Of a stretch of 64,000 bases of DNA, positions 24,197-38,011 are shown piece by piece (position 1 is the first letter of the stretch; the number at the start of each line of letters is the position of its first letter). Origin of the DNA: Blastococcus sp. MG754426 (lineage in GTDB: Bacteria; Actinomycetota; Actinomycetes; Mycobacteriales; Geodermatophilaceae); NCBI RefSeq assembly GCF_021699055.1, contig NZ_SSXC01000031.1:1-64000 (forward strand), in the 5' to 3' direction. The notes under the pieces are model-generated. The model worked only from the letters and a program-made list of their open reading frames with translations. It ran no database searches and had not been told where the DNA came from. The translations under genes were made by a program, and so were the position numbers.

Positions 24197-24201
24197 GCCG
24201 C

Positions 24202-25386
24202 TCAGCCCCCCGGCCCGCCGACGGCGGCGACCACCTCCTCCAGCGCCGCCAGGCTGTGCCCGCTGACGAAGGCGTCGCAGAACGGCAGCGCGGCCGCCAT
24301 GCCGCCGGCCAGCGGCGCGTACCCCGGGGCGGCCCGGCGCGGGTTGACCCACACGATGCGGTGGGCCAGCCGGCGCAGGCGTCGCATCGCGTCCGCCACC
24401 TCCTCGGGGTCGTCCTGCGCCCACCCGTCGGACAGCAGCAGCACGACGGCGCCCCGGGCCGGCCCGCGGCGGCCGTGGTCGGCGACGAACCGGCGGACCG
24501 CCTCGGCCAGCCGGGTGCCGCCGGCCCAGTCCGGTGCCGCCGCCGCGGCCCGGGCCAGCGCCTGGTCCGGATCGCGGACCGCGAGCTGGCGGGTGAGCCG
24601 GGTCAGCCGCGTGGAGAAGACGAACGCCTCGGCCCGCGCGCCGGCGACCGCGCCCTGCAGCAGGGTCAGGTAGACGCGGGTGTAGGGCTCCATCGAGCCC
24701 GAGACGTCGCAGAGCAGGACCAGCGGGCGGGGGACGCTCCGCCGGACGACGTGCACCAGTCGGGCCGGGTCACCCCCGGTGCGCTGCGCGGCGCGGACGG
24801 TGCGGCGGAGGTCCAGGGTGTCCCCCGCCCGCCGCGAGGGCCGCCGGCGCCGGCTGCGGCGCGGCGGTGTGCCCAGCACCAGGCGGCGCACCAGCCGGCG
24901 CACCTCGTCGACCTCCCTGGCGTCGAGGTCGGCGAACGAGGTGTGCCGCAGCCGCTCCTCGGCGGAGGCGGCGGCGAGGAGCACCTCCCGCTCGGCCTCC
25001 GCGCCGTCGTCCCCGCCGGTGCCCGTGGCCGCGCTCCCGGTGCCGCCGGGCTCGGCCGGGCGGTCGTCCGGCGGGCTGGGCCGGGTGCGCGGCTCGCTGC
25101 CGACCGCCGGCGGGGCGGTGGGGTCGCCCCGGCTGTCGGCGGGGTCGAGCCGGCCGTCGAAGAGGGCGGAGAACACCGCGTCGAACACCGGCAGCTGCGC
25201 GCGGTCGGTGACGAGCGCGACCCGGCAGGTCCAGTACAGCGCGGCGCGGTCCACCGGCGGCACCAGCTGCAGGGCCCGGGCCAGCCCCGCCGCGCGGTCG
25301 GGCGGCGCCGGCAGCCCGGCGCGGTGCAGGGCCGTGGTCAGGCCCACCGCCAGCGGGCCCGCGCCGACCGGCGGCAGGTCACCCAC
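24202..25386 (-). CDS. coxE: CoxE-like von Willebrand A domain protein
   Basis: A 394-residue protein with a C-terminal VWA domain. The MIDAS motif is CDVSGSMEPY, with the threonine in GGTRLAEAV and the aspartate in LLLSDGWAQDD. The middle (about residues 85-140) is low-complexity and charged. In CO-dehydrogenase clusters CoxE works with the MoxR ATPase CoxD in maturing the Mo-Cu active site, adding sulfur and copper. The GTG start overlaps the coxD-like 3' end by eight bases. It is the last gene of the cox operon here. Confidence 0.88.
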   Translation of the reverse strand: MGDLPPVGAGPLAVGLTTALHRAGLPAPPDRAAGLARALQLVPPVDRAALYWTCRVALVTDRAQLPVFDAVFSALFDGRLDPADSRGDPTAPPAVGSEPRTRPSPPDDRPAEPGGTGSAATGTGGDDGAEAEREVLLAAASAEERLRHTSFADLDAREVDEVRRLVRRLVLGTPPRRSRRRRPSRRAGDTLDLRRTVRAAQRTGGDPARLVHVVRRSVPRPLVLLCDVSGSMEPYTRVYLTLLQGAVAGARAEAFVFSTRLTRLTRQLAVRDPDQALARAAAAAPDWAGGTRLAEAVRRFVADHGRRGPARGAVVLLLSDGWAQDDPEEVADAMRRLRRLAHRIVWVNPRRAAPGYAPLAGGMAAALPFCDAFVSGHSLAALEEVVAAVGGPGG

Positions 25387-26293
25387 CGGCCAGCCAGGCC
25401 GCCCCGCGGGCGTGCACGAGTTCCCGGTCGTCCCGGTTCTTGAGCACCGCTCCCCACGTCCGCTCGACGGCGGCGGCGTCGAGCCGGGAGAGGCCCAGCA
25501 GGCCGAGCGCAGCCACCCAGTCGATCACCTCGGCGATCCCCGGCGGCTTGACCATGTCCAGCGAGCGCAGCCGGGCCACCGCCGCGGCCGCGGACTCGGC
25601 CAGCGGCAGGTCGCTGCCCGGTACCCGCCGGCGCACGATCTCGGCGACCCGCTCCGGCGGCGGGTAGTCGATCCAGTGGTACAGGCACCGGCGGGTCAGG
25701 GCGTCGTGCAGGTCGCGGGTCCGGTTGGAGGTGAGGACGGCGACCGGCGGGTGCGCGGCGCGGATGGTACCGAGCTCCGGCACGGTCACCGCCGCCTCGG
25801 CGAGCACCTCGAAGGTGAACGCCTCGAACTCCGCGTCGGCACGGTCGATCTCGTCGAGCAGCAGCACCGCCGGCCGGGGGCCCGGGTGCTCGACGGCCTG
25901 CAGCAGCGGGCGGCGCAGCAGGTAACCGGCGCCGAAGAGGTCGTCCTCGGCCAGCGGGGCTCCGGCGGCCTCGGCCAGGCGGATGCCGAGCAGCTGGCGG
26001 GGGTGGTTCCACTCGTACAGCGCCTCCGCCGCGTCGATCCCCTCGAAGCACTGCAGCCGGTGCAGCGGGGTGTCGAGCACCCGGGCCAGCGCCTTGGCCG
26101 CCTCGGTCTTGCCCACCCCCGGTTCGCCCTCCAGCAGCAGCGGCTGGGGCAGCCGCACGGCCAGGAACATCGCCGTCGCCAGGCCCTGGTCGGCCAGGTA
26201 CCCCACGTCGTCGAGCGCCCGGGTGAGCGCGGCGACGTCGGGCACCCGGGCCGCCACGTCCGACCCGGCGCCGGCCCGGGCCGGGCCGCTCAC
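25379..26293 (-). CDS. coxD: MoxR-type AAA+ ATPase (CoxD-like)
   Basis: A 304-residue AAA+ ATPase of the MoxR family. Walker A is LEGEPGVGKTEAAKAL near residues 53-68, Walker B is VLLLDEIDRAD, and sensor 1 is VLTSNRTRDLHDALTRRC. It is expected to remodel apo-CO dehydrogenase together with the VWA protein CoxE. The GTG start is ten bases after the preceding XdhC/YHS gene and it overlaps coxE. Confidence 0.9.
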   Translation of the reverse strand: MSGPARAGAGSDVAARVPDVAALTRALDDVGYLADQGLATAMFLAVRLPQPLLLEGEPGVGKTEAAKALARVLDTPLHRLQCFEGIDAAEALYEWNHPRQLLGIRLAEAAGAPLAEDDLFGAGYLLRRPLLQAVEHPGPRPAVLLLDEIDRADAEFEAFTFEVLAEAAVTVPELGTIRAAHPPVAVLTSNRTRDLHDALTRRCLYHWIDYPPPERVAEIVRRRVPGSDLPLAESAAAAVARLRSLDMVKPPGIAEVIDWVAALGLLGLSRLDAAAVERTWGAVLKNRDDRELVHARGAAWLAGG

Positions 26294-26302
26294 CGGCGGG
26301 TC

Positions 26303-27120
26303 CTAGGAGGCGGCCGCATACCGGGCCGGGTCCTCGAGGAAGCGGGTGCGGCACCCCGGGCAGCAGAACCACGTCGTCACCCCGTCCACCTCGGCGCGCG
26401 GCGTCGCGTCGACGGCGGCCACGGTCATCCCGCACACCGGGTCGACGGCCCGGGCCGGGCCGGTGCCGGCGGGCGGCGCCGGGCGGGCCCGGCAGGGCTG
26501 TGCACCCGTGCGCGGAGCTCGTCGGGGACGTCGAGCGCGGCCAGCACCGCCGCGCCGCGGATGCGGCTGGCGATCAGCCCCACGTAGGGCACCCCCAGCC
26601 GCAGCGCAGCGGTGAGCGCCGGCTCCTCCCCGCGCCCGTGCGAGGCCACCACCAGCGCCGCGTCCCCGGCGGCCGGCTCCGCACGCTCGCCGGGCACGGC
26701 GACGGCGTCGAAGCCGAGCGGGCCACCGAGGGCGGCGAGCGCCTGCGCGATCGGGCTGTCGCCGACGACCAGCAGCCGCGGTGCCGGCACGCGGGGCTCC
26801 AGGAAGATCTCCACCGACCCGCCGGAGAGGCAGGGGTTGGCGACGGTCACCGCCCCCTCCTCCGTCGACCGCGGCAGCTGCTCGCCGGGCACGATCCGCA
26901 GCAGCACCGGCTCGTTGGTGGCCAGCGTCATCAGCCCGTACTCGCGCACCGAGCTCTCCGCGCACGTGCCGCCGACGAAGCCGTCGATCCGCCCGTCGGC
27001 GCGCACGAGAGCGGTGTCGCCGGCGTGCGCGCTCGCCGGCTTCTGCGCGCGGACGACGGTCGCCTGGACGAACGGCTCCCGCGAGCGGGACAGCTCGGCG
27101 GCGAGGTCAGCCACGATCAT
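26303..27120 (-). pseudogene. XdhC/CoxF-like maturation protein with C-terminal YHS domain, apparently frameshifted
   Basis: The frame starting at 27120 encodes an XdhC-type protein: GRIDGFVGGTCAESSVREYG, the Rossmann start LLVVGDSPIAQALAALG, and PYVGLIASRIRG. After VHSPAG at about 26485 the family would continue with a conserved C-terminal helix, but the frame turns into Pro/Arg-rich sequence and stops at 26425. A different frame encodes an intact YHS metal-binding domain (DPVCGMTVAAVD, then FCCPGCRTRFLEDP) ending at 26303. That domain has no start before its DPVCGM motif, so it must have been fused. A short deletion of the XdhC tail with a frame change, or a sequencing error in this GC-rich stretch, explains it. 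XdhC/CoxF proteins deliver or protect the molybdenum cofactor. Confidence 0.7.
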
Positions 27121-27182
27121 CGGTCACCTCTCGGGCAGGGACGCGCCGCCGGCGTGCGAGCGGCGGGGCCTCGGGTCCTTCC

Positions 27183-29597
27183 TCAGATGGGCGGGGTGGG
27201 CCGGCCCTGCATGGCCTCCCACACCCGGGCGGGCGTGCAGGGCATGTCCATGTGCCGGATGCCGAACGGGGCCAGCGCGTCGACCACCGCGTTGACCACC
27301 GCGGGCGGGGAGCCGACGGTCGCGGACTCGCCGATCCCCTTGGCCCCGATCGGGTGGTGCGGCGACGGGGTGACCGTGTAGCCGGTCTCCCAGTCCGGCA
27401 CCTCCATCGCCGTGGGGATCAGGTAGTCCATGAAGGAGCCGCCCAGGCAGTTGCCCTGCTCGTCGAAGCCGATGAACTCCATGAGCGCCATGCCGACGCC
27501 GTCGGCCAGCCCGCCGTGGATCTGCCCCTCCACGATCATCGGGTTGATCCGCGTGCCGCAGTCGTCGACCGCCACGAACCGGCGCACGTGCACCTTGCCG
27601 GTGCCCGGGTCGACGTCCACGACGCAGATGTAGGCGCCGAACGGGAAGGTGAGGTTGGGCGGGTCGTAGGTGACCTCGGCGTCGAGGTTGCCGTCGACGC
27701 CCTCGGGCAGCTCCACGGTGCCGTGCGCGCCCAGGGCGATCTCGGCCATCGTCTTCCCGGCGGACGGGTCACCCTTCACCGACCAGCGGCCCTTCTCCCA
27801 CTCGAGGTCCTCCGGCCGGGTCTCGAGCATCGCCGCCGCGATCAGCCGGGCCTTGTCCTTCACCTTGCGCGCGGCCAGGGCCACGGCTCCCCCGCTCACC
27901 GGCGTCGAGCGGCTGCCGTAGGTGCCCAGGCCGAACGGCGTCTGGTCGGTGTCACCGTGCACGACGTCGACGTCCTCGGGCGGGATGCCGAGCTCCTCGG
28001 CGAGGATCTGCGCGAACGTCGTCTCGTGGCCCTGCCCCTGGGTCTGCACCGAGAGCCGGACGACGGCCTTCCCGGTGGGGTGCACGCGCACCTCGGCGCC
28101 GTCGGCCATGCCCAGGCCCACGATGTCCATGTGCTTGCGCGGCCCGGCGCCCACGGTCTCGGTGAAGAAGGAGACGCCGATGCCCATGAGCTCGCCGCGC
28201 CCCCGCTTCTCGGCCTGCTCGCGGCGCAGCTCGTCGTAGCCGATCTGCTCCATCGCCATCCGCAGCGCGGGCTCGTAGTCGCCCGAGTCGTACTCCCAGC
28301 CCGTCTTGTTCTTGTACGGGAACTGCTCGGGCTTGATGAAGTTCCGCAGCCGCAGCTCGGCCGGGTCCATGCCGAGCTCGGCGGCCAGGACGTCGACCAT
28401 CCGCTCGACCAGGTACACCGCCTCGGTCACCCGGAACGAGCAGGCGTAGGCGACGCCGCCGGGGGCCTTGTTCGTGTAGACGCCGGTGACCGAGCAGTGC
28501 GCGGCCTGGAGGTCGTAGCTGCCGGTGAAGATGGAGAAGAAGCCGGCCGGGTACTTGGTCGGCTGCGCGGTCGCGTTGAACGCCCCGTGGTCGGCGAGCA
28601 CCTTCGTGCGGACGGCGAGGATCTTGCCCTCGCGGGTCGCCGCCACCTCGCCGCGCATGATGTAGTCCCGCGCGAACGAGGTGCTCATCAGGTTCTCCGA
28701 GCGGTCCTCGACCCACTTCACCGGCTTGCCGGTCACGATCGAGCCGACCACGGCCAGGATGTAGCCGGGGTAGATGCCGACCTTGTTGCCGAAGCCCCCA
28801 CCGATGTCCGGCGAGACCACCCGGATCTTGTGCTCCGGGATGCCGGCCACCATCGCGAACAGCGTGCGGTGCGCGTGCGGGGCCTGCGAGGTCTCGTACA
28901 GGGTGAGCCGGCCCTCGACCGGCTCGTAGTCGGCGATCGCGCCGCAGGTCTCCATGGGCGCCGGGTGCACCCGCGGGTAGACCACCTCCTCGCTGACGAC
29001 GACGTCGGCGCGGGCGAACACCACCTCGGTCTCCGCGGCGTCGCCGGCCTCCCAGTCGAAGATGTGGTTGTCGGTGCGGCCCTCGAGGTCGTCGCGGATG
29101 ACCGGGGCGTCGGCGTCCAGCGCCCGGCGGACGTCGACCACCGGCGGCAGGTCCTCGTACTCGACGTCGATGAGCTCGAGCGCGTCGCGGGCCGAGTACC
29201 GGTCCTCGGCGACCACGAAGGCGACCTCCTGGCCCTGGAAGCGCACCTTGTCGGTGGCCAGCACGGCCTGGACGTCGGCCGACAGGGTGGGCGCCCAGGC
29301 GAGGTTCAGCCCCTCGAGGTCCTTGCCGGTGACCACCGCGTGCACCTTGGGGTGGGCCAGCGCCTCGGTGGTGTCGATCGAGACGATCCGCGCGTGGGCC
29401 ATCGGCGAGCGCAGGATCGCGCCGTGCAGCATGCCGGGCAGGACGATGTCGTCGAGGTAGCGGCCCTTGCCGCGGACGAACCGCGGGTCCTCCTTGCGCT
29501 GCACCCGCCCGTAGCCGATCGGCCGGTCGGGGGCGTCCATCGCGGGGTTGGCCTCGCGCTCCTGCGGCATCGGGGAGCGCTCCTGGACGGCGGTCAT
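27183..29597 (-). CDS. coxL: Aerobic carbon monoxide dehydrogenase large subunit, form I
   Basis: An 804-residue molybdenum hydroxylase subunit. The diagnostic form I loop AYACSFR (residues 383-389, Cys386 as copper ligand) is present and separates true CO dehydrogenases from form II and xanthine dehydrogenases. Other motifs are GGGFGNKVG at 267-275, QGQGHET for the cofactor, and the catalytic glutamate in [12 protein letters not shown] near the C-terminus. The enzyme oxidises CO to CO2 and feeds electrons to the respiratory chain. The ATG overlaps the coxS stop by four bases. Confidence 0.97.
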
Positions 29598-30085
29598 GCC
29601 GTCACCTCCTGGTCGGTGGCGGCGGCCGCGGGGTGCTCGGCGGCCCACCGGACCGAGCGGACGATGGTGGCGTAGCCGGTGCAGCGGCAGATCTGCCCGG
29701 AGATCGCCTCGCGGATGGTGGCCTCGTCGGGGTCGGGATCCCGGTCGAGCAGCGCCCGGGCGGTGAGCATCATCCCGGGGGTGCAGAACCCGCACTGCAA
29801 CCCGTGCTCGGCCATGAAGCCCTGCTGCACCGGGTCGAGCCCGGCGCCGCCGGCCAGCCCCTCGACGGTCCGCACCTCGTGCCCCGAGGTCATCGCCGCC
29901 AGCTGGGTGCAGGACTTCACCGGCAGGCCGTCGACGAGGACGACGCAGGTGCCGCAGTTGCTCGTGTCGCACCCCCAGTGGGTGCCGGTCAGCCCCAGCG
30001 TCTCGCGCAGGAAGTGGACGAGCAGCTGGCGCGGTTCGACGTCGCGGGTGACCTCGGCCCCGTTGACGGTCATCGTGACCTGCAT
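29594..30085 (-). CDS. coxS: CO dehydrogenase small (2Fe-2S) subunit
   Basis: A 163-residue electron-transfer subunit with both expected clusters: the plant-ferredoxin type by Cys39, Cys44, Cys47 and Cys59 ([10 protein letters not shown]...SC), and the second by Cys98, Cys101, Cys133 and Cys135 (QCGFCTPG...ICRCTG). Electrons pass from the Mo-Cu centre in CoxL to the FAD in CoxM. It starts three bases after coxM and overlaps coxL by four, so the three subunits are translationally coupled. Confidence 0.96.
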
Positions 30086-30088
30086 CGG

Positions 30089-30976
30089 TCAGCCTCCCTG
30101 GACGGCGGTGAGGGCACCGGCGCGCGCGGCGGCGGTGCGGAGGACCCGGCGGGTGAGTTCGTCGGCGAGGTGCCGCTTGTAGTCGACCGGCCCGCGGCCG
30201 TCCTCGACGGGCGCGCTGGCCGCGGCGGCCAGTCGTGCCGCCTCGGCGAAGAGCGCCTCGTCCGGACGCTGCCCCACCAGGACGGCGGCGGCCTCGACGG
30301 CCAGCCCCTCGAGCCCGAGGGCGGTCAGGCCGACGGCGGCCTCGGTGATCGCCCCGCCGTCGTCGAGCACCAGCGCGGCGCCGGCGGCGGCGACCGCCCA
30401 GTCCCCCACCCGGCGCTCCACCTTCTCGTAGGCGCTGCCCTGGCCGGCGCGGACCGGGAACCGCACCTCGGTGACGATCTCGTCCTGCGCGCAGGCCGTC
30501 TCGTAGGGCCCGCGGTGGAACTCCGGCATCGCGACGACCCGCTCGCCGTCCCGCCCGGCGATGACCACCTCGGCGCGCAGCACGTCGCAGACGGTGGTGA
30601 GGTCCTCGGCCGGGTCGGCCTGGGCCAGCGAGCCCCCGATCGTGCCGCGGTTGCGCACCACCGGGTCGGCGATCACCCGCTCGGCGTCGTGCACGATCGG
30701 GAACAGCCGTCCCACGACCTCGGAGCCCAGCAGCTCGGCGTGGCGGGTGAGCGCGCCGACGCGGAGGCGTCCGGGCTCCTCGGTGATGTGCCGCAGCTCG
30801 GCGACGTCGTTGATGTCGACCACCCAGTCGGGGCGGGCCAGCCGCAGCTTCATCATCGGGAGCAGGCTGTGGCCGCCGGCGACGAGCCGGGCCTCCTCCC
30901 CGTGACGCTCGAGCAGCTCGAGCGCCTCGGCGACGCTGGTCGCCCGCGCGTAGTCGAACGGAGCCGGGACCTGCAC
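30089..30976 (-). CDS. coxM: CO dehydrogenase medium (FAD) subunit
   Basis: A 295-residue FAD-binding subunit. The two family motifs that hold the FAD pyrophosphate are visible: VAGGHSLLPMMKLR near residues 32-45 and TIGGSLAQADPAEDL near 111-125. It begins with GTG (VQVPAPFDYARA), the normal length and start for CoxM. As first gene of the coxMSL order its upstream region, shared with a divergent LysR gene, carries the control elements described separately. Confidence 0.95.
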   Translation of the reverse strand: MQVPAPFDYARATSVAEALELLERHGEEARLVAGGHSLLPMMKLRLARPDWVVDINDVAELRHITEEPGRLRVGALTRHAELLGSEVVGRLFPIVHDAERVIADPVVRNRGTIGGSLAQADPAEDLTTVCDVLRAEVVIAGRDGERVVAMPEFHRGPYETACAQDEIVTEVRFPVRAGQGSAYEKVERRVGDWAVAAAGAALVLDDGGAITEAAVGLTALGLEGLAVEAAAVLVGQRPDEALFAEAARLAAAASAPVEDGRGPVDYKRHLADELTRRVLRTAAARAGALTAVQGG

Positions 30977-31035
30977 GGGGCCACCCCCTTCCCGAGGGCC
31001 CCGATGCCGGGGCCTGGTGCCGAGGGACCTTGTCG

Positions 31036-31049
31036 GTGATCCAGGTCAC
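31036..31049. promoter_or_regulatory. CRP/GlxR-like site upstream of coxM
   Basis: GTGA-N6-TCAC is a perfect match to the core of the actinobacterial CRP/GlxR consensus (TGTGA-N6-TCACA), centred about 66 bases before the coxM GTG. It abuts a TTGACA (31055-31050, minus strand) that could be a coxM -35, though the corresponding -10 is poor. Carbon-status control of CO oxidation would be consistent with known physiology but is inferred. Confidence 0.5.
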
Positions 31050-31056
31050 TGTCAAC

Positions 31057-31071
31057 ATCGAGATAACCGAT
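31057..31071. promoter_or_regulatory. LysR-type box (T-N11-A) between coxM and the LysR gene
   Basis: ATCG-N7-CGAT contains the T-N11-A dyad (31058-31070) typical of LysR binding sites. It lies 20 bases before the divergent LysR gene and about 80 before coxM, the usual place for a shared autoregulation and activation site. Confidence 0.5.
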
Positions 31072-31090
31072 CGCTTACGAGGGTCGCCCG

Positions 31091-32044
31091 ATGACGTTCA
31101 CGCAGTTGCGGGCCTTCGCCCTGGTGGCCGAGCTGGGGTCGCTGCGGGCCGCCGCCGCGGCGCTCGGCGTGAGCGAACCGGCGGTCTCGGCGGCGGTGTC
31201 CGCGCTGCGGAGCGACCTCGGCGACCCGCTGTTCCGCAGGACCGGCACCGGGATCGCCCTGACCCCGGGCGGGCGCGCGCTGGCGGTCCGCGCCCGCGAG
31301 CTGGTGCGGCTGGCCGAGCGGACCCGGCGGGAGGTGGCGACGGCGACCTCGACCGACCGCCTCCGCGTGCTGGCGACGCCCTCGTGCGCCGAGCACGTCG
31401 CCGGCGCCGTGCTGGACGCCTTCACCCGCCGGGTCGCGGGCGCGGGGATCGAGCTCACCACCGGGTCGACCGACTGCGCCGCGACCGCCCTGGCCGACGG
31501 TGACGCCGACGTCGTCCTGGGCGTGCGGCCCGCCCCCGCACCGGGGCAGGTGCTCGAGCCGGTGCCGTTCCTGCGGTACCGGCGGGTCGTCGTCGCCGCG
31601 CCGGGGCACCCGCTCGCCCCCCGCACCCGGCTCCGGGTCGAGGAGCTGGCCGCGGCCCGGTGGCTGACCGGGCCGGCCGGGCTGGAGCCGGGCAGCGAGG
31701 AGGAGCGGTGGGCCGCCGCCGGGGGGTCCCCGCCCGACGTCGAGCGGTGCGAGAGCGAGGCCGCCGCGCTGGCGGCGGTGCTGCGCGGGCGGGGCGTGCT
31801 GCTGGCCCTGGCCCACGCCGTCCGCGAGCGGGTCGCCCGGGGGGCCCTGGTCCGGCTGCCGGTCGAGGGCACCCCGGTGAGCGGGCTGTGGTGGGCGACC
31901 GTGCCGGGCGAGGGCCGCGCCGTCGCCGCCGCCCGGGCGCTGCAACGCTTCCTCACGACGCCGGACGCGACCAGCGCGCTGCTGGCCCGGCCCGAGCGCC
32001 GCGACCGACCCCGGCCGACCGTGCGTGTGGAGCTGTGGAGCTAG
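31091..32044 (+). CDS. LysR-family transcriptional regulator, probable cox regulator
   Basis: A 317-residue LysR regulator. The N-terminal winged helix (FTQLRAFALVAELGSLRAAA, recognition region VSEPAVSAAVSALR, then DPLFRR and LTPGGRAL) is complete, followed by a periplasmic-binding-protein-like effector domain. It is divergent from coxM with a T-N11-A box between them, so it probably activates the cox operon; CO or a redox state as effector is not known. Its TAG stop lies within a CTAG shared with the stop of the convergent small gene. Confidence 0.85.
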   Translation: MTFTQLRAFALVAELGSLRAAAAALGVSEPAVSAAVSALRSDLGDPLFRRTGTGIALTPGGRALAVRARELVRLAERTRREVATATSTDRLRVLATPSCAEHVAGAVLDAFTRRVAGAGIELTTGSTDCAATALADGDADVVLGVRPAPAPGQVLEPVPFLRYRRVVVAAPGHPLAPRTRLRVEELAAARWLTGPAGLEPGSEEERWAAAGGSPPDVERCESEAAALAAVLRGRGVLLALAHAVRERVARGALVRLPVEGTPVSGLWWATVPGEGRAVAAARALQRFLTTPDATSALLARPERRDRPRPTVRVELWS

Positions 32045-32295
32045 GCCGACGGGCCGGTCGACCGGTGCCGGCCCGGTCCGCCGTCGCCCAGCACGACCTG
32101 CCCCTCGGTCATCTCCGGGTCGCCGCGGCGCTGCTCGACGGGGGCCTGGCCGGTGGTGTTCCCCGCCCCGCGGTCGTGCCCCTCCTGGACGGCGCTGCCG
32201 TGTTCGGCGACCCGGATCGCCTCGGCGACGTCGTCCCCGCTGCGGGCGTGGTCGGGCGCGGTGCCGCCCGTGGCCGGCTCTGCTGGATCGGTCAT
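32041..32295 (-). CDS. Small hydrophilic protein of unknown function (84 aa)
   Basis: An 84-residue charged protein without membrane segments, beginning MTDPAEPATGG and rich in Gly, Glu, Asp, Arg and Pro. It looks largely disordered and no family is recognised. The ATG has CGGAGGTTGCC directly upstream, which makes it a credible gene despite its composition. It is convergent with the LysR gene and shares four bases at the stops. The coiled-coil gene lies 70 bases upstream in the same direction. Confidence 0.6.
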   Translation of the reverse strand: MTDPAEPATGGTAPDHARSGDDVAEAIRVAEHGSAVQEGHDRGAGNTTGQAPVEQRRGDPEMTEGQVVLGDGGPGRHRSTGPSA

Positions 32296-32365
32296 GGCAA
32301 CCTCCGCGCGACGTCGGGCGTGTGCGGGCAGTGTCGCGGCGGAGCCCGGGACCGGCAAGGTGCCG

Positions 32366-33392: not shown

Positions 33393-33860
33393 TCAGCAGC
33401 AGGCGGCGGCCGGCTGGGCCTCCGTCCGGCAGCAGCTGCCGTCGCCGGCGACGTCGGCGAGCTCGGGCTCGGTGCGGCCCTCCAGGTCCGGGCGCGCGTC
33501 GGCCGTGACGGTGTAGACCTCCCACGGTTCCCCGCCCGGGCCGGTCACCCACACCTTGTCCTGGACGGCGTAGCAGCAGGTGGTGCCGTCCTCGACCCGC
33601 GTCGCCAGCCCGGCGTCGGCCAGCCGGCCGGTCGCGGCGCCGACCTCCTCCGGGGAGGCGACCTCGACGCCGAGGTGGTCCATGCGGGTGGGTTCCCCCG
33701 CCCGGCCCTCGAGCAGCACCAGCTTCAGCGGCGGCTCGACGACGGCGAAGTTGGCGTAGCCGGGCCGCCGCTTGGCCGGGACGGTGTCGAACAGCCGCGA
33801 GTAGAAGTCGACGGCGGCGTCGAGGTCGGCGACGCGGAGGGCGAGCTGGACACGGGACAC
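33393..33860 (-). CDS. arsI: ArsI/CadI-family metalloenzyme (organoarsenical C-As lyase-like)
   Basis: A 155-residue vicinal-oxygen-chelate protein. It has the metal ligand positions of ArsI (Gln5 in RVQLALRV, His62 in RMDHLGVEV, Glu114 in EPWEVYT) and the vicinal pair Cys95-Cys96 in TTCCYAVQDKVWV that binds trivalent organoarsenicals. Further Cys residues near the C-terminus (SCC, AACC) may bind metals. ArsI cleaves the carbon-arsenic bond of MAs(III); CadI relatives respond to cadmium. It is divergent from arsR, which supports the arsenic role. The GTG has GGAGGTTCCC upstream. Confidence 0.85.
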   Translation of the reverse strand: MSRVQLALRVADLDAAVDFYSRLFDTVPAKRRPGYANFAVVEPPLKLVLLEGRAGEPTRMDHLGVEVASPEEVGAATGRLADAGLATRVEDGTTCCYAVQDKVWVTGPGGEPWEVYTVTADARPDLEGRTEPELADVAGDGSCCRTEAQPAAACC

Positions 33861-33933
33861 GGGAACCTCCTGGGACGTAGGACATAGACGGACGTCGATG
33901 TCTGAACGCAGAATGAACACCTTGTATCGATGC

Positions 33934-33963
33934 TTGTCAATACGATGTCCATCGTTACGATGG
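33934..33963 (+). promoter_or_regulatory. arsR promoter with overlapping ArsR-type operator
   Basis: TTGTCA (33934-33939) and TACGAT (33956-33961) are separated by 16 bases. The perfect inverted repeat CCATCGT-T-ACGATGG (33949-33963) covers the -10, and a related TATCGATG lies just upstream. This arrangement fits repression by ArsR of its own operon and possibly of divergent arsI. Confidence 0.6.
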
Positions 33964-33990
33964 CCGTCGACACCTCACGAAGGAGCACCG

Positions 33991-34329
33991 ATGAGCGATC
34001 CGGCCCTGGCCTGCTGCACCCCGTTGTCCGGCACGGCGATGTCCGCCGAGCAGGCCGAGCAGGTCGCCCCCCTCCTCAAGGCGCTGGCCGACCCGGTCCG
34101 CCTGCGGCTGATGAGCCTCATCGCCTCCAGCGCCAGCGGTGACGCCTGCGTCTGCGACCTGAACGACGCCTTCGACCTCACCCAGGCCACGATCAGCCAC
34201 CACCTGAAGGTGCTGCACTCGGCCGGGCTGCTCGACCGGGAGAAGCGCGGGGTGTGGGTGTACTACGCCGTCCGCCCCACCGCGCTGCGCGCCGTCGCCG
34301 GCCTCTTCGAGACGGCGGTGCCCGCGTGA
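33991..34329 (+). CDS. arsR: ArsR-family arsenic-responsive repressor
   Basis: A 112-residue ArsR/SmtB repressor. It has an N-terminal Cys pair (LACCTPL), the winged helix LLKALADPVRLRLMSLI and TQATISHHLKVLHSAGLL, and a metal-site CVCDL before the recognition helix. As(III) binding to these cysteines should release DNA. The ATG has GAAGGAGCACCG upstream. It heads the plus-strand ars genes; acr3 follows after 73 bases. Confidence 0.92.
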   Translation: MSDPALACCTPLSGTAMSAEQAEQVAPLLKALADPVRLRLMSLIASSASGDACVCDLNDAFDLTQATISHHLKVLHSAGLLDREKRGVWVYYAVRPTALRAVAGLFETAVPA

Positions 34330-34402
34330 GCCGGCTCGCGAGCCCACCCACGAGCAGAGCAGCGCTGCGAACGCGGCCGACGGGCGCCGGCGAGGAGGAC
34401 TC

Positions 34403-35527
34403 GTGAGCGACGCCGTCCGGGAGACCGCCCGCCCCGATGCCCCGGCCGACGCGCCCGTCCTGCAGAAGCTGTCCACCCTCGACCGGTTCCTGCCGGTGTG
34501 GATCATCGCCGCGATGGCGCTCGGGCTCGCGCTGGGCCGCTGGGTGCCGGGCCTGGACGACGCGCTGAGCGCGGTCGAGGTGGGCGACGTCAGCCTGCCG
34601 ATCGCGATCGGCCTGCTCCTGATGATGTACCCGGTGCTGGCCAAGGTCCGGTACTCCGAGCTGGACCGGGTCACCGGCGACCGGAAGCTCCTCGCCGCCT
34701 CCCTGGTGCTCAACTGGCTGCTCGGCCCGGCGCTGATGTTCGCCCTGGCGTGGCTGCTGCTCCCGGACCTGCCCGAGTACCGGACCGGGCTGATCATCGT
34801 GGGCCTGGCCCGCTGCATCGCGATGGTGCTGATCTGGAACGACCTGTCCTGCGGCGACCGGGAGGCAGGCGCCGTCCTGGTGGCGATCAACTCGGTGTTC
34901 CAGATCCTCGCCTTCGCCCTCCTGGGCTGGTTCTACCTGCAGGTGCTGCCCGGCTGGCTGGGGCTGGCCACCACATCCGCGGAGTTCAGCTTCTGGGCGA
35001 TCGTGCTCTCGGTGCTGGTGTTCCTCGGCATCCCGCTGCTGGCCGGCTTCCTCACCCGCACGATCGGCGAGCGCCGCAGGGGCCGCGCCTGGTACGAGGG
35101 CAGGTTCCTGCCGCGCATCGGCCCGGTCGCCCTCTACGGCCTGCTGTTCACGATCGTGATGCTGTTCGCGCTGCAGGGCGATGCGATCACCTCCCGGCCC
35201 TGGGACGTCGCCCGCATCGCCCTGCCGCTGCTCGCCTACTTCGTCCTCATGTTCGGCGGTTCGTTCCTGCTGGGCATGCGGCTGCGCCTCGGCTACGCGA
35301 AGACGGCGACGCTCGCGTTCACCGCGGCCGGCAACAACTTCGAGCTCGCCATCGCCGTCGCCATCGGCACGTTCGGCGTCACCAGCGGGCAGGCGCTCGC
35401 CGGCGTCGTCGGACCGCTCATCGAGGTACCGGTCCTGGTCGCGCTCGTCTACGTCTCGCTGTGGGCCGCTCGCCGCTGGTTCCCCGGCGACCCGACCGTC
35501 CCCACGACCGCCAGGAGCACCCGATGA
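34403..35527 (+). CDS. acr3: Arsenite efflux permease Acr3
   Basis: A 374-residue membrane transporter with about ten helices. The essential cysteine of the family is Cys138 in GLARCIAMVLIWNDL, and the second conserved region GNNFELAIAVAIGTFG carries the functional glutamate. It exports As(III) using the proton-motive force. The GTG start has GAGGAGGACTC upstream. Its stop overlaps the ATG of the next gene, an arsenate reductase (ATGA). Confidence 0.95.
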   Translation: MSDAVRETARPDAPADAPVLQKLSTLDRFLPVWIIAAMALGLALGRWVPGLDDALSAVEVGDVSLPIAIGLLLMMYPVLAKVRYSELDRVTGDRKLLAASLVLNWLLGPALMFALAWLLLPDLPEYRTGLIIVGLARCIAMVLIWNDLSCGDREAGAVLVAINSVFQILAFALLGWFYLQVLPGWLGLATTSAEFSFWAIVLSVLVFLGIPLLAGFLTRTIGERRRGRAWYEGRFLPRIGPVALYGLLFTIVMLFALQGDAITSRPWDVARIALPLLAYFVLMFGGSFLLGMRLRLGYAKTATLAFTAAGNNFELAIAVAIGTFGVTSGQALAGVVGPLIEVPVLVALVYVSLWAARRWFPGDPTVPTTARSTR

Positions 35528-36174
35528 CGCCGACCGGCTCCCCCGCCGGGGTCCCCGGGCTGCTGGACCCGGACGTGCTGCTGCGACGCCACGTCGAGGA
35601 CCTCGCCGCCCGCTTCGCCGGGATGGTGAGCCCGGAGACCGTCGAGCGGATGGTCTTCGAGTCCTACGCCGCCCTCGGGCGCACCGCCCGGGTCACGGCC
35701 CACCTGCCGGTGCTCACCTGCCGGTTCGCCACCGAGCGGCTGACCGCGCTCGCCCAGGCCAAGGGGGTGCTGGCCAAGGACGGACCCGAGGTGCTCTTCG
35801 TCTGCGTCCACAATGCCGGCCGGTCCCAGATGGCCGCCGCGATGGTCGACCACCTCTCGGAGGGGCGGGTGCACGTCCGCTCCGCCGGCTCCATGCCCGC
35901 CGACACGGTCGACCCCGTCGTCCTCGAGGTGCTCACCGCGCGCGGCATGACGGTGACCGACGCCTTCCCCAAGCCGTTGACCGACGACGTCGTCCGGGCC
36001 GCCGACGTGGTGGTCACCATGGGCTGCGGCGACGCCTGCCCCGTCTACCCGGGCAAGCGCTACCTGGACTGGGACGTCGCCGACCCGGCAGGCCGGGACC
36101 GGGCCGCGGTGGAGTCCATCGCCGCAGACATCGAGACACGTGTGCGGCGGCTGCTCGCCGAGCTCGGGGCATGA
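35524..36174 (+). CDS. arsC: Arsenate reductase with N-terminal helical domain
   Basis: A 216-residue protein. Residues 1-80 form a helical domain seen in actinobacterial arsenate reductases, with a three-helix dimerisation role inferred. Residues 88-216 are a low-molecular-weight phosphatase-type reductase with the P-loop CVHNAGRS (Cys94, Arg100) and the thiol pair Cys168 and Cys172 in MGCGDACPVYPGKR. It reduces arsenate to arsenite, in actinobacteria usually with mycothiol/mycoredoxin. It overlaps acr3 and the following flavoenzyme gene by four bases each. Confidence 0.92.
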   Translation: MTPTGSPAGVPGLLDPDVLLRRHVEDLAARFAGMVSPETVERMVFESYAALGRTARVTAHLPVLTCRFATERLTALAQAKGVLAKDGPEVLFVCVHNAGRSQMAAAMVDHLSEGRVHVRSAGSMPADTVDPVVLEVLTARGMTVTDAFPKPLTDDVVRAADVVVTMGCGDACPVYPGKRYLDWDVADPAGRDRAAVESIAADIETRVRRLLAELGA

Positions 36175-37601
36175 CCCGTCGCCTGCTGGTCATCGGTGGC
36201 AGCGACGCCGGCATCTCCGCCGCCCTCCGCGCCCGGGAGCTCGACCCGTCGGCGCAGGTCACCGTCGTGGTGGCCGACGCCTACGCCAACTTCTCCATCT
36301 GCGGGATCCCCTACCACGTCTCCGGGGACGTGCCGCGCTGGCAGTCCCTCGCGCACCGCACGGCCGCCGACCTCGAGGCGGCGGGACTGACCGTCCGGCC
36401 GAGCACACGGGCCACCGCCATCGACGTGCCCGGGCGGTGCGTCGCCGTGACCGGGCCCGACGGCGGAACGGAGCTGCTGCCCTACGACGAGCTGGTCGTG
36501 GGGACCGGCGCCCGCCCGGCCCTCCCGGCGATCACGGGCCTCGCCGACCTGGGACCGGCCGACGGCGTGCACCTGCTGCACACGATCGACGACACCCATG
36601 CCCTCGTGGCCGGCCTCCAGGAACGCCGGGTCCGCTCGGCGCTGGTCGTGGGCGCCGGCTACATCGGCGTGGAGATGGCCGAGGCGTTGGTCGCCCGCGG
36701 CATCGCCACCACCGTGGCGCAGCGTCCCGCCGAGGTGCTCACCACCGTGGACCCCGGGCTGGGTGCCCTCGTCCGCGCCGAGATGGCGGCGCACGGCGTG
36801 GAGGTGCTCACCGGCACCGGCGTCACCGGCCTCACCCGCACCGCCGACGGACGCATCGCCGCGACGGCCGGCGGCGGCGGGCTCGACCGCTCCTTCGACC
36901 TCGTGCTCGTCGCTTCCGGCGTGCGTCCCGACGTGGACCTCCTCGTGGACGCCGGCGCCCGGACCGGAGCCGGGGGCGCGGTGGTCGTCGACGAGACGAT
37001 GGCCACCGGCCTGCCGCACGTCCGGGCGGCCGGGGACTGCGTGGTCACCCACCACCGCCTGCTCGGCACCACCTACCTGCCGCTGGGCACCACCGCCCAC
37101 AAGCAGGGCCGTGTCGCCGGCGCCAACGCCGTCGGCGGGGACGCGCGCTTCGCCGGCAGCGTCGGCACCCAGGTCGTGAAGGTCTTCGGCCTGGTGGCCG
37201 CCCGCACCGGGCTGCTCGCGCACGAGGCGGTCGCCGCCGGCTTCCGCCCGGTCACCACCGAGACGCTCGTGGACGACCACAAGGCGTACTACCCGGGCGC
37301 TCGGCCGATCACGATCCGCATCACCGCGGACGCCGGCACGGGGCGGCTGCTCGGCGCCCAGCTCGTCGGCCGGCTGGGCAGCGAGGTGGCCAAGCGCGCC
37401 GACGTCTACGCCACCGCGCTGTTCCACGGCATGACCGTCGAGGGCATGGCCGACCTCGACCTGACCTACACCCCGCCGCTGGGCTCGCCCTGGGACGCCG
37501 TGCAGATGGCAGCCCAGGCGTGGACCCGCGAGCACCGCCCTGCACCCACCACCCGATCCACCCCGGCCGACCCGGCCGCACGTCCGAGGAGAACCCCGTG
37601 A
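36171..37601 (+). CDS. CoA-disulfide-reductase/NADH-oxidase-like flavoprotein
   Basis: A 476-residue FAD- and NAD(P)H-dependent pyridine-nucleotide-disulfide oxidoreductase. The N-terminal FAD fold is LLVIGGSDAGISAALRA, the single redox cysteine is Cys44 in FSICGIPYHVSG, the NAD fold is ALVVGAGYIGVEMAEAL, and the C-terminal dimerisation domain is present with DLTYTPPLGSPWDAVQ. This one-cysteine type includes CoA-disulfide reductases and NADH oxidases. Its position between two arsC genes, with overlaps on both sides, suggests a thiol-reducing role in arsenate reduction, which is an inference. Confidence 0.85.
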   Translation: MTRRLLVIGGSDAGISAALRARELDPSAQVTVVVADAYANFSICGIPYHVSGDVPRWQSLAHRTAADLEAAGLTVRPSTRATAIDVPGRCVAVTGPDGGTELLPYDELVVGTGARPALPAITGLADLGPADGVHLLHTIDDTHALVAGLQERRVRSALVVGAGYIGVEMAEALVARGIATTVAQRPAEVLTTVDPGLGALVRAEMAAHGVEVLTGTGVTGLTRTADGRIAATAGGGGLDRSFDLVLVASGVRPDVDLLVDAGARTGAGGAVVVDETMATGLPHVRAAGDCVVTHHRLLGTTYLPLGTTAHKQGRVAGANAVGGDARFAGSVGTQVVKVFGLVAARTGLLAHEAVAAGFRPVTTETLVDDHKAYYPGARPITIRITADAGTGRLLGAQLVGRLGSEVAKRADVYATALFHGMTVEGMADLDLTYTPPLGSPWDAVQMAAQAWTREHRPAPTTRSTPADPAARPRRTP

Positions 37602-38011
37602 GCCACCGCCCCAGCGTCCTGTTCGTCTGCGTGCACAACGCCGGCCGTTCGCAGATGGCCGCCGGCTGGCTGCGCCACCTCGGCGGCGACGCCGTCGAGG
37701 TCCGCTCGGCCGGCTCGCTGCCCGGCGAGCAGGTCAACCCCGCCGCGGTCCAGGCGATGGCCGAGGTCGGCATCGACATCTCCGACCAGCGCCCCAAGGT
37801 GCTCACCACCGACGCCGTCGAGGCCTCCGACGTGGTGATCACCATGGGCTGCGGCGACGCGTGCCCGGTCTTCCCCGGCAAGCGCTACCTGGACTGGCCG
37901 CTGGATGACCCGGCCGGCCAGGGCGTCGAGGCGGTGCGGCCGATCCGCGACGAGATCGAGCGGCGCATCCGCGGGCTGCTCGCCGAGCTCGGGGCCGGCT
38001 CCGCCGCCTGA
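37598..38011 (+). CDS. arsC: Arsenate reductase, single-domain
   Basis: A 137-residue low-molecular-weight phosphatase-type arsenate reductase, similar to the C-terminal domain of the gene at 35524. It has Cys11-x5-Arg17 in FVCVHNAGRSQMA, and Cys85 and Cys89 in MGCGDACPVFPGKR. The two ArsC proteins share the MGCGDACP and PGKRYLDW blocks, indicating paralogy, but this copy lacks the helical domain. The GTG has CGAGGAGAACCCC upstream and overlaps the flavoprotein stop. It is the last gene of the ars operon. Confidence 0.92.
   Translation: MSHRPSVLFVCVHNAGRSQMAAGWLRHLGGDAVEVRSAGSLPGEQVNPAAVQAMAEVGIDISDQRPKVLTTDAVEASDVVITMGCGDACPVFPGKRYLDWPLDDPAGQGVEAVRPIRDEIERRIRGLLAELGAGSAA

What the first reader, a model, noticed from the sequence alone, without database searches (positions are those of the whole stretch)
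26303..27120. XdhC/CoxF-YHS maturation gene broken by an apparent deletion-frameshift in the CO dehydrogenase cluster
The XdhC frame loses its conserved C-terminal helix after VHSPAG and terminates at 26425, while an intact YHS domain continues in another frame to 26303 with no start codon ahead of its DPVCGM motif. All other cox genes look intact. Either CO dehydrogenase maturation works without this fusion, the gene is recently inactivated, or a GC-rich stretch was misread.
Basis: partly seen in the sequence, partly recalled or inferred. Interest (0 to 1): 0.5.

Follow-up and report, generated by a model that had tools for sequence, protein, structure and literature searches.

The report
Freshly broken CO-dehydrogenase maturation gene
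In an actinobacterium, the helper gene that finishes the carbon-monoxide-oxidising enzyme seems to have lost a short piece and its reading frame while the rest of its gene cluster looks healthy; it is an ordinary recent gene break, useful mainly as a natural knock-out.

Summary
The XdhC frame (27120-26425, minus strand) matches relatives up to VHSPAG (residue 211), then runs through 20 unrelated residues to a stop; an intact YHS domain lies in another frame (26443-26303). Of 64 related loci outside this genome, 60 read XdhC, C-terminal helix and YHS in one frame, 4 lack YHS but keep the helix, none is cut like this one. From PAG to DPVCGM the window has 44 nt; 32 read-through relatives have 111-195, most often 117 (10 of 32). 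The missing 73 nt fits a deletion between two GCCGGGC copies; 3 of 15 close relatives carry that repeat exactly 73 nt apart. The lost piece is the last helix of the Rossmann domain, so a frame trick would not restore it. Substitutions still show purifying selection, so the break is recent. Best reading: a real, recent loss-of-function deletion in a CoxF-type maturation gene of a form I cox cluster, a cluster that is patchy among relatives and wholly missing from the same place in the closest genome compared. Without reads, an assembly error or a one-strain variant cannot be excluded.

The parts
26425..27120 (-). Truncated XdhC/CoxF-type ORF, 231 aa, stop TGA at 26425-26427
26488..27120 (-). 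Part of the ORF homologous to relatives (residues 1-211, to VHSPAG)
   Evidence: 91% aa identity to L011
26487..26493 (-). GCCGGGC, the single copy at the inferred deletion junction
26428..26487 (-). 20 non-homologous residues: the inter-domain linker read in the wrong frame
26303..26443 (-). Intact YHS domain in another frame (DPVCGM ... WFCCPGC ... stop)
   Evidence: Pfam PF04945; 89% aa identity to T. endophytica
26435..26437 (-). GTG inside DPVCGM: possible restart that would keep the YHS cysteines
   Evidence: use not tested
26426..26428 (-). ATG overlapping the XdhC stop (ATGA): possible restart, loses the first YHS cysteine
   Evidence: use not tested
30089..30976 (-). coxM (FAD subunit)
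   Evidence: in one piece against L011
29594..30085 (-). coxS (2Fe-2S subunit)
27183..29597 (-). coxL, form I large subunit with AYACSFR, 804 aa from ATG 29597 (start inferred)
25379..26293 (-). coxD (MoxR-type AAA ATPase; GTG start inferred)
24202..25386 (-). coxE (VWA_CoxE)
31091..32044 (+). LysR-type regulator, divergent from coxM
24198..32357 (.). Whole cox block, absent as one piece in G005, the closest of the genus-mates compared

Best explanation
This is a recently inactivated coxF-type gene of a form I (AYACSFR) aerobic CO dehydrogenase cluster. The ancestral gene encoded one protein: an XdhC module with its Rossmann domain, a proline/alanine-rich linker and a YHS domain. A deletion, most likely of 73 nt between two copies of GCCGGGC (one at the PAG codons, one at the end of the last helix), removed the terminal Rossmann helix and shifted the frame. 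The product is now a 231-aa XdhC without its last helix and with a 20-aa nonsense tail; YHS is cut off. Shown: the break, what is missing, the unbroken neighbours, the lack of relaxed selection. Inferred: the deletion route, that the truncated protein is inactive, and that the strain therefore fails to put copper into its form I enzyme, as reported for coxF mutants of Oligotropha carboxidovorans.
For: Uniqueness: 60 of 64 non-own loci in one frame, 4 without YHS but with the helix, 0 like the window. The missing part is a predicted helix (219-243) at the end of the Rossmann domain; model mean pLDDT 91.3, blocks 211-240 at 87-96; it holds, with its entry, invariant L212 and A223 and near-invariant D213, G215, E221, S225, A228. 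Spacer arithmetic: 44 + 73 = 117, the commonest spacer, 10 of 32; GCCGGGC recurs exactly 73 nt downstream in 3 of 15 close relatives, and the +73 site is within one mismatch of it in 10 of 15. No relaxed selection: 8 nonsynonymous / 20 synonymous changes on the window branch against 7 / 18 on the T. endophytica branch, 30 ambiguous sites left out; in a rough calculation, neutral drift for a quarter or more of the branch fits poorly (P = 0.03). The missing segment was not found elsewhere in the genome: next match E = 0.02. Function by analogy: coxF::km cannot use CO and its enzyme lacks Cu (PMC4240915, passages read).
Against: No reads, second strain or second assembly: the deletion rests on one 224-contig draft. 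No expression or CO-uptake data. A second, distant XdhC gene exists in this genome (C181:27654-28094) and might stand in. The exact repeat is missing in 12 of 15 relatives, including the nearest one, and codon shuffling makes the same-word repeat by chance, at any distance tested, in 0.5-26% of shuffles (6-11% for the three that have it). In O. carboxidovorans the coxF mutant also lacked CoxE, so its phenotype is not CoxF's alone.
Confidence: 0.72

Rival explanations
1. Assembly or library artefact: the 92% G+C stretch was mis-joined or jumped during amplification, and the organism's gene is intact.
For: The junction lies in one of the most G+C-rich stretches of the window (0.14% of 60-nt windows as rich) and can fold (-37 kcal/mol against a mean of -32.2 for shuffles, z -1.86, 9 of 200 shuffles as good). 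The genome is a 224-contig draft. Retained selection in both halves is what an intact gene would show.
Against: Some 73 nt and a whole helix are missing, not a base or two. A 7-nt repeat is far shorter than the words assemblers use (general knowledge). In a small check of relatives' ORFs on this contig (21 matched from G005, 9 from G016, 9 from G044, 5 from a T. endophytica stretch) two were split across frames: the XdhC gene itself, and one G005 ORF whose first 60 residues match out of frame at the end of the ArsR-like ORF and which I take for a spurious upstream extension. The check missed the known XdhC break when run from G044, so it is a lower bound. No second allele was found in the assembly.
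Confidence: 0.17
2. A working split system: truncated XdhC still acts, and YHS is made separately by termination-reinitiation at GTG 26437 or at the ATGA overlap (26428).
For: Both halves look conserved. A GTG that keeps the YHS cysteines starts 10 nt before the XdhC stop, and an ATG overlaps it. YHS is absent from 4 of 64 loci and from O. carboxidovorans CoxF, so XdhC can do without a fused YHS.
Against: The XdhC half has lost its last Rossmann helix, which the profile match covers in all 64 non-own loci examined and which O. carboxidovorans CoxF keeps. By eye no good ribosome-binding sequence precedes either start. Restart codons are easily met by chance.
Confidence: 0.06
3. Programmed ribosomal frameshifting joins the two frames.
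For: The YHS frame is open well upstream of the XdhC stop, so a slip could read on.
Against: No X XXY YYZ heptamer in phase between 26303 and 26540 (other slip types not tested). Most relatives read through without a shift. A shift would not bring back the lost helix.
Confidence: 0.01
4. The inactivation is real but without consequence, because the distant XdhC on C181 or another factor matures the form I enzyme (overlaps with the best explanation on the DNA, differs on the outcome).
For: An XdhC gene with a complete XdhC_C match and C-terminal segment stands on C181, on the same contig as an AYRGAGR large subunit.
Against: It is so distant that a protein search with the broken gene did not list it at E <= 0.001. 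The coxF mutant of O. carboxidovorans could not use CO although another XdhC-family gene lies downstream on the same plasmid.
Confidence: 0.12

Closest known systems
CoxF of Oligotropha (Afipia) carboxidovorans plasmid pHCG3 (WP_013913733.1)
   Same: XdhC_CoxI plus XdhC_C domains, in a form I coxM-S-L cluster with MoxR ATPase and VWA genes; mutant lacks Cu in CODH (PMC4240915, passages)
   Different: It keeps the terminal helix, has no YHS domain and sits after the VWA gene; the window gene sits between coxL and coxD, belongs to a YHS-fused branch, and is broken
XdhC-YHS gene of Trujillonella endophytica DSM 45413 (L011)
   Same: Nearest relative: 91% aa over residues 1-211, 89% in YHS, cox genes collinear
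   Different: One continuous 303-aa frame
XdhC-like proteins of solved structure, 2we7/2we8 (Mycobacterium smegmatis homologue of Rv0376c) and 3on5
   Same: Matched by sequence profile and by fold over the XdhC part: model residues 1-235 to 1-246, Z 13.7-15.2
   Different: rmsd about 11.5 A, so the domains are placed differently; YHS is not covered
YHS domain of Mycobacterium phlei adenylyl cyclase
   Same: C-terminal YHS joined by a linker to another protein; proposed copper sensor, probably through one Asp and three Cys (PMC4626032, abstract and outline seen)
   Different: Host protein is a cyclase, not a molybdoenzyme maturation factor

Membership tests
XdhC/CoxF maturation factors | N-terminal XdhC_CoxI domain (PF02625) | tested here: met
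   56.3 bits, cut-off 24.3
XdhC/CoxF maturation factors | Complete XdhC_C Rossmann domain (PF13478) with its terminal helix | tested here: not met
   Over the cut-off (45.2 bits) but profile positions 1-106 of 125 only; complete in L011 and O. carboxidovorans CoxF. A broken former member, as far as sequence tells
XdhC-YHS fusion branch | YHS domain in the same frame behind a linker | tested here: not met
   YHS is present but in another frame; in frame in 60 of 64 non-own loci
Form I Mo-CODH (cox) cluster | CoxL with AYxCSFR active-site motif (motif recalled) | tested here: met
   AYACSFR
Form I Mo-CODH (cox) cluster | coxM, coxS, coxL with coxD and coxE nearby | tested here: met
   each aligned in one piece with L011
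Form I Mo-CODH (cox) cluster | CO oxidation by the encoded enzyme | not testable with these tools
   Needs culture and assay
Programmed frameshift gene | In-phase slippery heptamer in the overlap | tested here: not met
   None of type X XXY YYZ between 26303 and 26540; other slip types not tested

The most novel reading that the evidence does not exclude
The YHS domain fused to XdhC is the copper-carrying module for the Cu-S-Mo site of form I CO dehydrogenase, a fusion found behind AYxCSFR-type CoxL in many Actinomycetota and in Thermomicrobium, and the window organism is a natural strain in which carrier (YHS) and chaperone (XdhC) have been cut apart, possibly still working in two pieces.
Probability: 0.06. 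Interest if true: 0.6.

Novelty: new member of a known kind. Interest (0 to 1): 0.25.

Why it matters
As a gene break it is ordinary. Its use is twofold. First, coxL is commonly taken as the mark of CO oxidisers (general knowledge); here a coxM-S-L set without visible damage sits beside a broken maturation gene, so a survey by coxL would count this strain. Second, the YHS domain fused to XdhC behind AYxCSFR CoxL (motif found upstream in 53 of 56 non-own loci with at least 1,450 nt held upstream) is a testable candidate for the copper step of maturation, and no paper in the library searched holds both words XdhC and YHS.

Tried and rejected
Considered and dropped: a 105-nt deletion between the CGGGCC copies seen in T. 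endophytica, since it would keep the frame and needs a second indel. Old pseudogene: no excess of nonsynonymous change. Relocation of the missing piece: the best other match in the genome has E = 0.02, in the distant XdhC on C181. Programmed frameshift: no heptamer of the type tested.

Led nowhere: genus-mates as references, since 0 of 22 carry this XdhC and only one gives a marginal match (E = 4e-4); a first dN/dS run on YHS used a wrong frame and is void (YHS redone); 300 kb of the T. endophytica contig showed one weaker match to the window contig outside the cox block, and a 19.9-kb DNA search of that genome gave only scattered weaker matches. The frame-split check is small and missed the known break when run from G044. 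A first look at the phylum loci did not turn minus-strand loci round and was replaced; the one YHS-less locus there (L135) was looked at again. Rows left out of the CoxL-motif count for want of upstream DNA: L013, L017, L022, L027, L040, L133, L139, L144; without the motif although DNA was held: L024, L031, L123. Literature searches: (listings only, apart from passages of PMC4240915 and abstract/outline of PMC4626032).

Full report
What is there. The window (75% G+C) lies on a 70,345-base contig of a 4.71-Mb, 224-contig draft. The nearest relatives found for this gene are Geodermatophilaceae (Trujillonella, Blastococcus, Geodermatophilus). On the minus strand stand coxM, coxS, coxL, the gene in question, coxD and coxE, with a LysR-type gene divergent from coxM. 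CoxL carries AYACSFR, the form I motif (recalled).

The break. The XdhC frame opens at 27120 and stops at 26425 (231 aa). Pfam sees XdhC_CoxI and, of XdhC_C, only profile positions 1-106 of 125; a YHS domain scores in another frame. Against Trujillonella endophytica the protein is 91% identical to residue 211 and then stops matching. The relative reads on in one frame for 303 aa with a complete XdhC_C and a YHS domain. Of these 64, 60 carry XdhC, helix and YHS in one frame, 4 lack YHS but keep the helix, and none is cut like the window (the four YHS-less loci looked at again). Three loci from order relatives also read through; one of them, L003, is the same gene as L124.

Size and route. Between PAG and DPVCGM the window has 44 nt. 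The 32 relatives measured read through in one frame with spacers of 111 to 195 nt; 117 is the commonest (10 of 32). 117 minus 44 is 73, which is 1 modulo 3, as the two frames demand. At the junction the window has one GCCGGGC (26487-26493). In 3 of 15 close relatives these seven bases stand at PAG and again exactly 73 nt on, at the ERRA codons; in 10 of 15 the +73 site is within one mismatch. Codon-shuffled controls repeat the relative's own seven-base PAG-site word, at any distance tested, in 0.5-26% of cases, so the repeat alone is modest evidence; its agreement with spacer and frame is what persuades. The nearest relative has neither the exact repeat nor the 117-nt spacer (138 nt), so 73 is the simplest figure, not a proven one. 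I infer a slipped-strand type deletion. The region is 92% G+C and can fold, though not remarkably.

What was lost. A model of the intact T. endophytica protein (mean pLDDT 91.3, 24-row alignment) has helix 219-243 at the end of its Rossmann domain, then a loose linker and YHS. Solved XdhC-like structures 2we7, 2we8 and 3on5 align from residue 1-2 to 235-246 (Z 13.7-15.2, rmsd about 11.5 A, so the domains sit differently). The deletion takes this helix and its GLDxG entry, with invariant and near-invariant residues. O. carboxidovorans CoxF lacks YHS but has the helix. So the helix loss, more than the loss of YHS, should be disabling, and neither restart nor frameshifting would cure it. That the truncated protein is inactive is inference.

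How old. With seven other Geodermatophilaceae loci as outgroups, the window branch of residues 1-211 has 8 nonsynonymous and 20 synonymous changes, the T. endophytica branch 7 and 18 (30 ambiguous sites left out). A rough calculation makes neutrality over a quarter or more of the branch a poor fit (P = 0.03). YHS shows 2 and 4 against 3 and 0. So the break is recent, or the gene is intact in the organism and broken only in the assembly, or the parts still work.

Consequence. In O. carboxidovorans, coxF::km cannot use CO and its CODH lacks Cu; the same mutant also lacked CoxE, so the effect is not CoxF's alone (PMC4240915, passages). By analogy the window strain should make a form I enzyme without copper. 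This is inference. The genome has another, distant XdhC on contig C181, complete by sequence, behind a frame that looks like a VWA/CoxE-type protein by eye, on a contig that also holds an AYRGAGR large subunit; whether it can substitute is unknown. Early termination might also lower coxD translation, whose inferred GTG follows the YHS stop after 9 nt; this too is inference.

Setting. I compared rpoB regions with 8 of the 22 genus-mates sampled and with other genomes (20 of 21 genomes gave a locus). G005 is the closest (97.3%); it is collinear with much of the window's first 38 kb but lacks 24,198-32,357 as one block, as does G016, while Blastococcus litoris (G044) has the block at the same place. 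In none of the 22 genus-mates does the best CoxL match exceed 47% identity, and this XdhC was not found there beyond one marginal match. A tree of six Cox proteins from 16 sequences pairs the window with T. endophytica (support 1.00), yet by rpoB T. endophytica is the least similar (92.6%) of the genomes compared other than G035, which belongs to another family. The cluster is thus patchy, moved or repeatedly lost; a broken maturation gene would fit a trait under weak or fluctuating selection. That last step is inference.

Verdict. Observation confirmed; recent inactivation favoured at 0.72, artefact at 0.17. Ordinary as a phenomenon; interest 0.25, mostly as a natural knock-out and because the XdhC-YHS fusion is a copper-handling candidate: a YHS-bearing cyclase of M. 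phlei responds to copper (PMC4626032, abstract), and no paper in the library has both XdhC and YHS.

Noticed in passing
window 24198-32357: The whole cox block is absent as one piece in G005 and G016 but sits at the same place in Blastococcus litoris; its tree pairs it with T. endophytica against the rpoB order, so the cluster seems to move or be lost repeatedly.
   Followed up: partly
L011-L045, L122-L151, L090: XdhC fused to a YHS domain follows AYxCSFR-type CoxL in most loci examined and in Thermomicrobium roseum, but O. carboxidovorans CoxF has no YHS; possibly a copper-handling module.
   Followed up: partly
L043:6001-7089: A Solirubrobacteraceae XdhC carries two YHS domains in tandem.
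   Followed up: no
L036, L037, L038 (Phytohabitans), L135, L089 (Nonomuraea): XdhC behind AYACSFR CoxL that ends after the helix without YHS in frame, so YHS seems lost or never gained in several lines.
   Followed up: partly
L012 and L018 (MAG RYN_169): One metagenome-assembled genome holds two different XdhC-YHS genes (84% and 83% to the window), perhaps a mixed bin.
   Followed up: no
window 33393-37991: Beside the cox block lie an ArsR-like regulator ORF (33898-34329) and a small VOC-like ORF (labels by eye and recall, no family search); about 2 kb (35528-37613) has little counterpart in G005 but is present in G016.
   Followed up: no
G000:C181:27654-28094: Second XdhC gene with complete XdhC_C match; an AYRGAGR-type large subunit lies on the same contig at 2359-4707.
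   Followed up: partly
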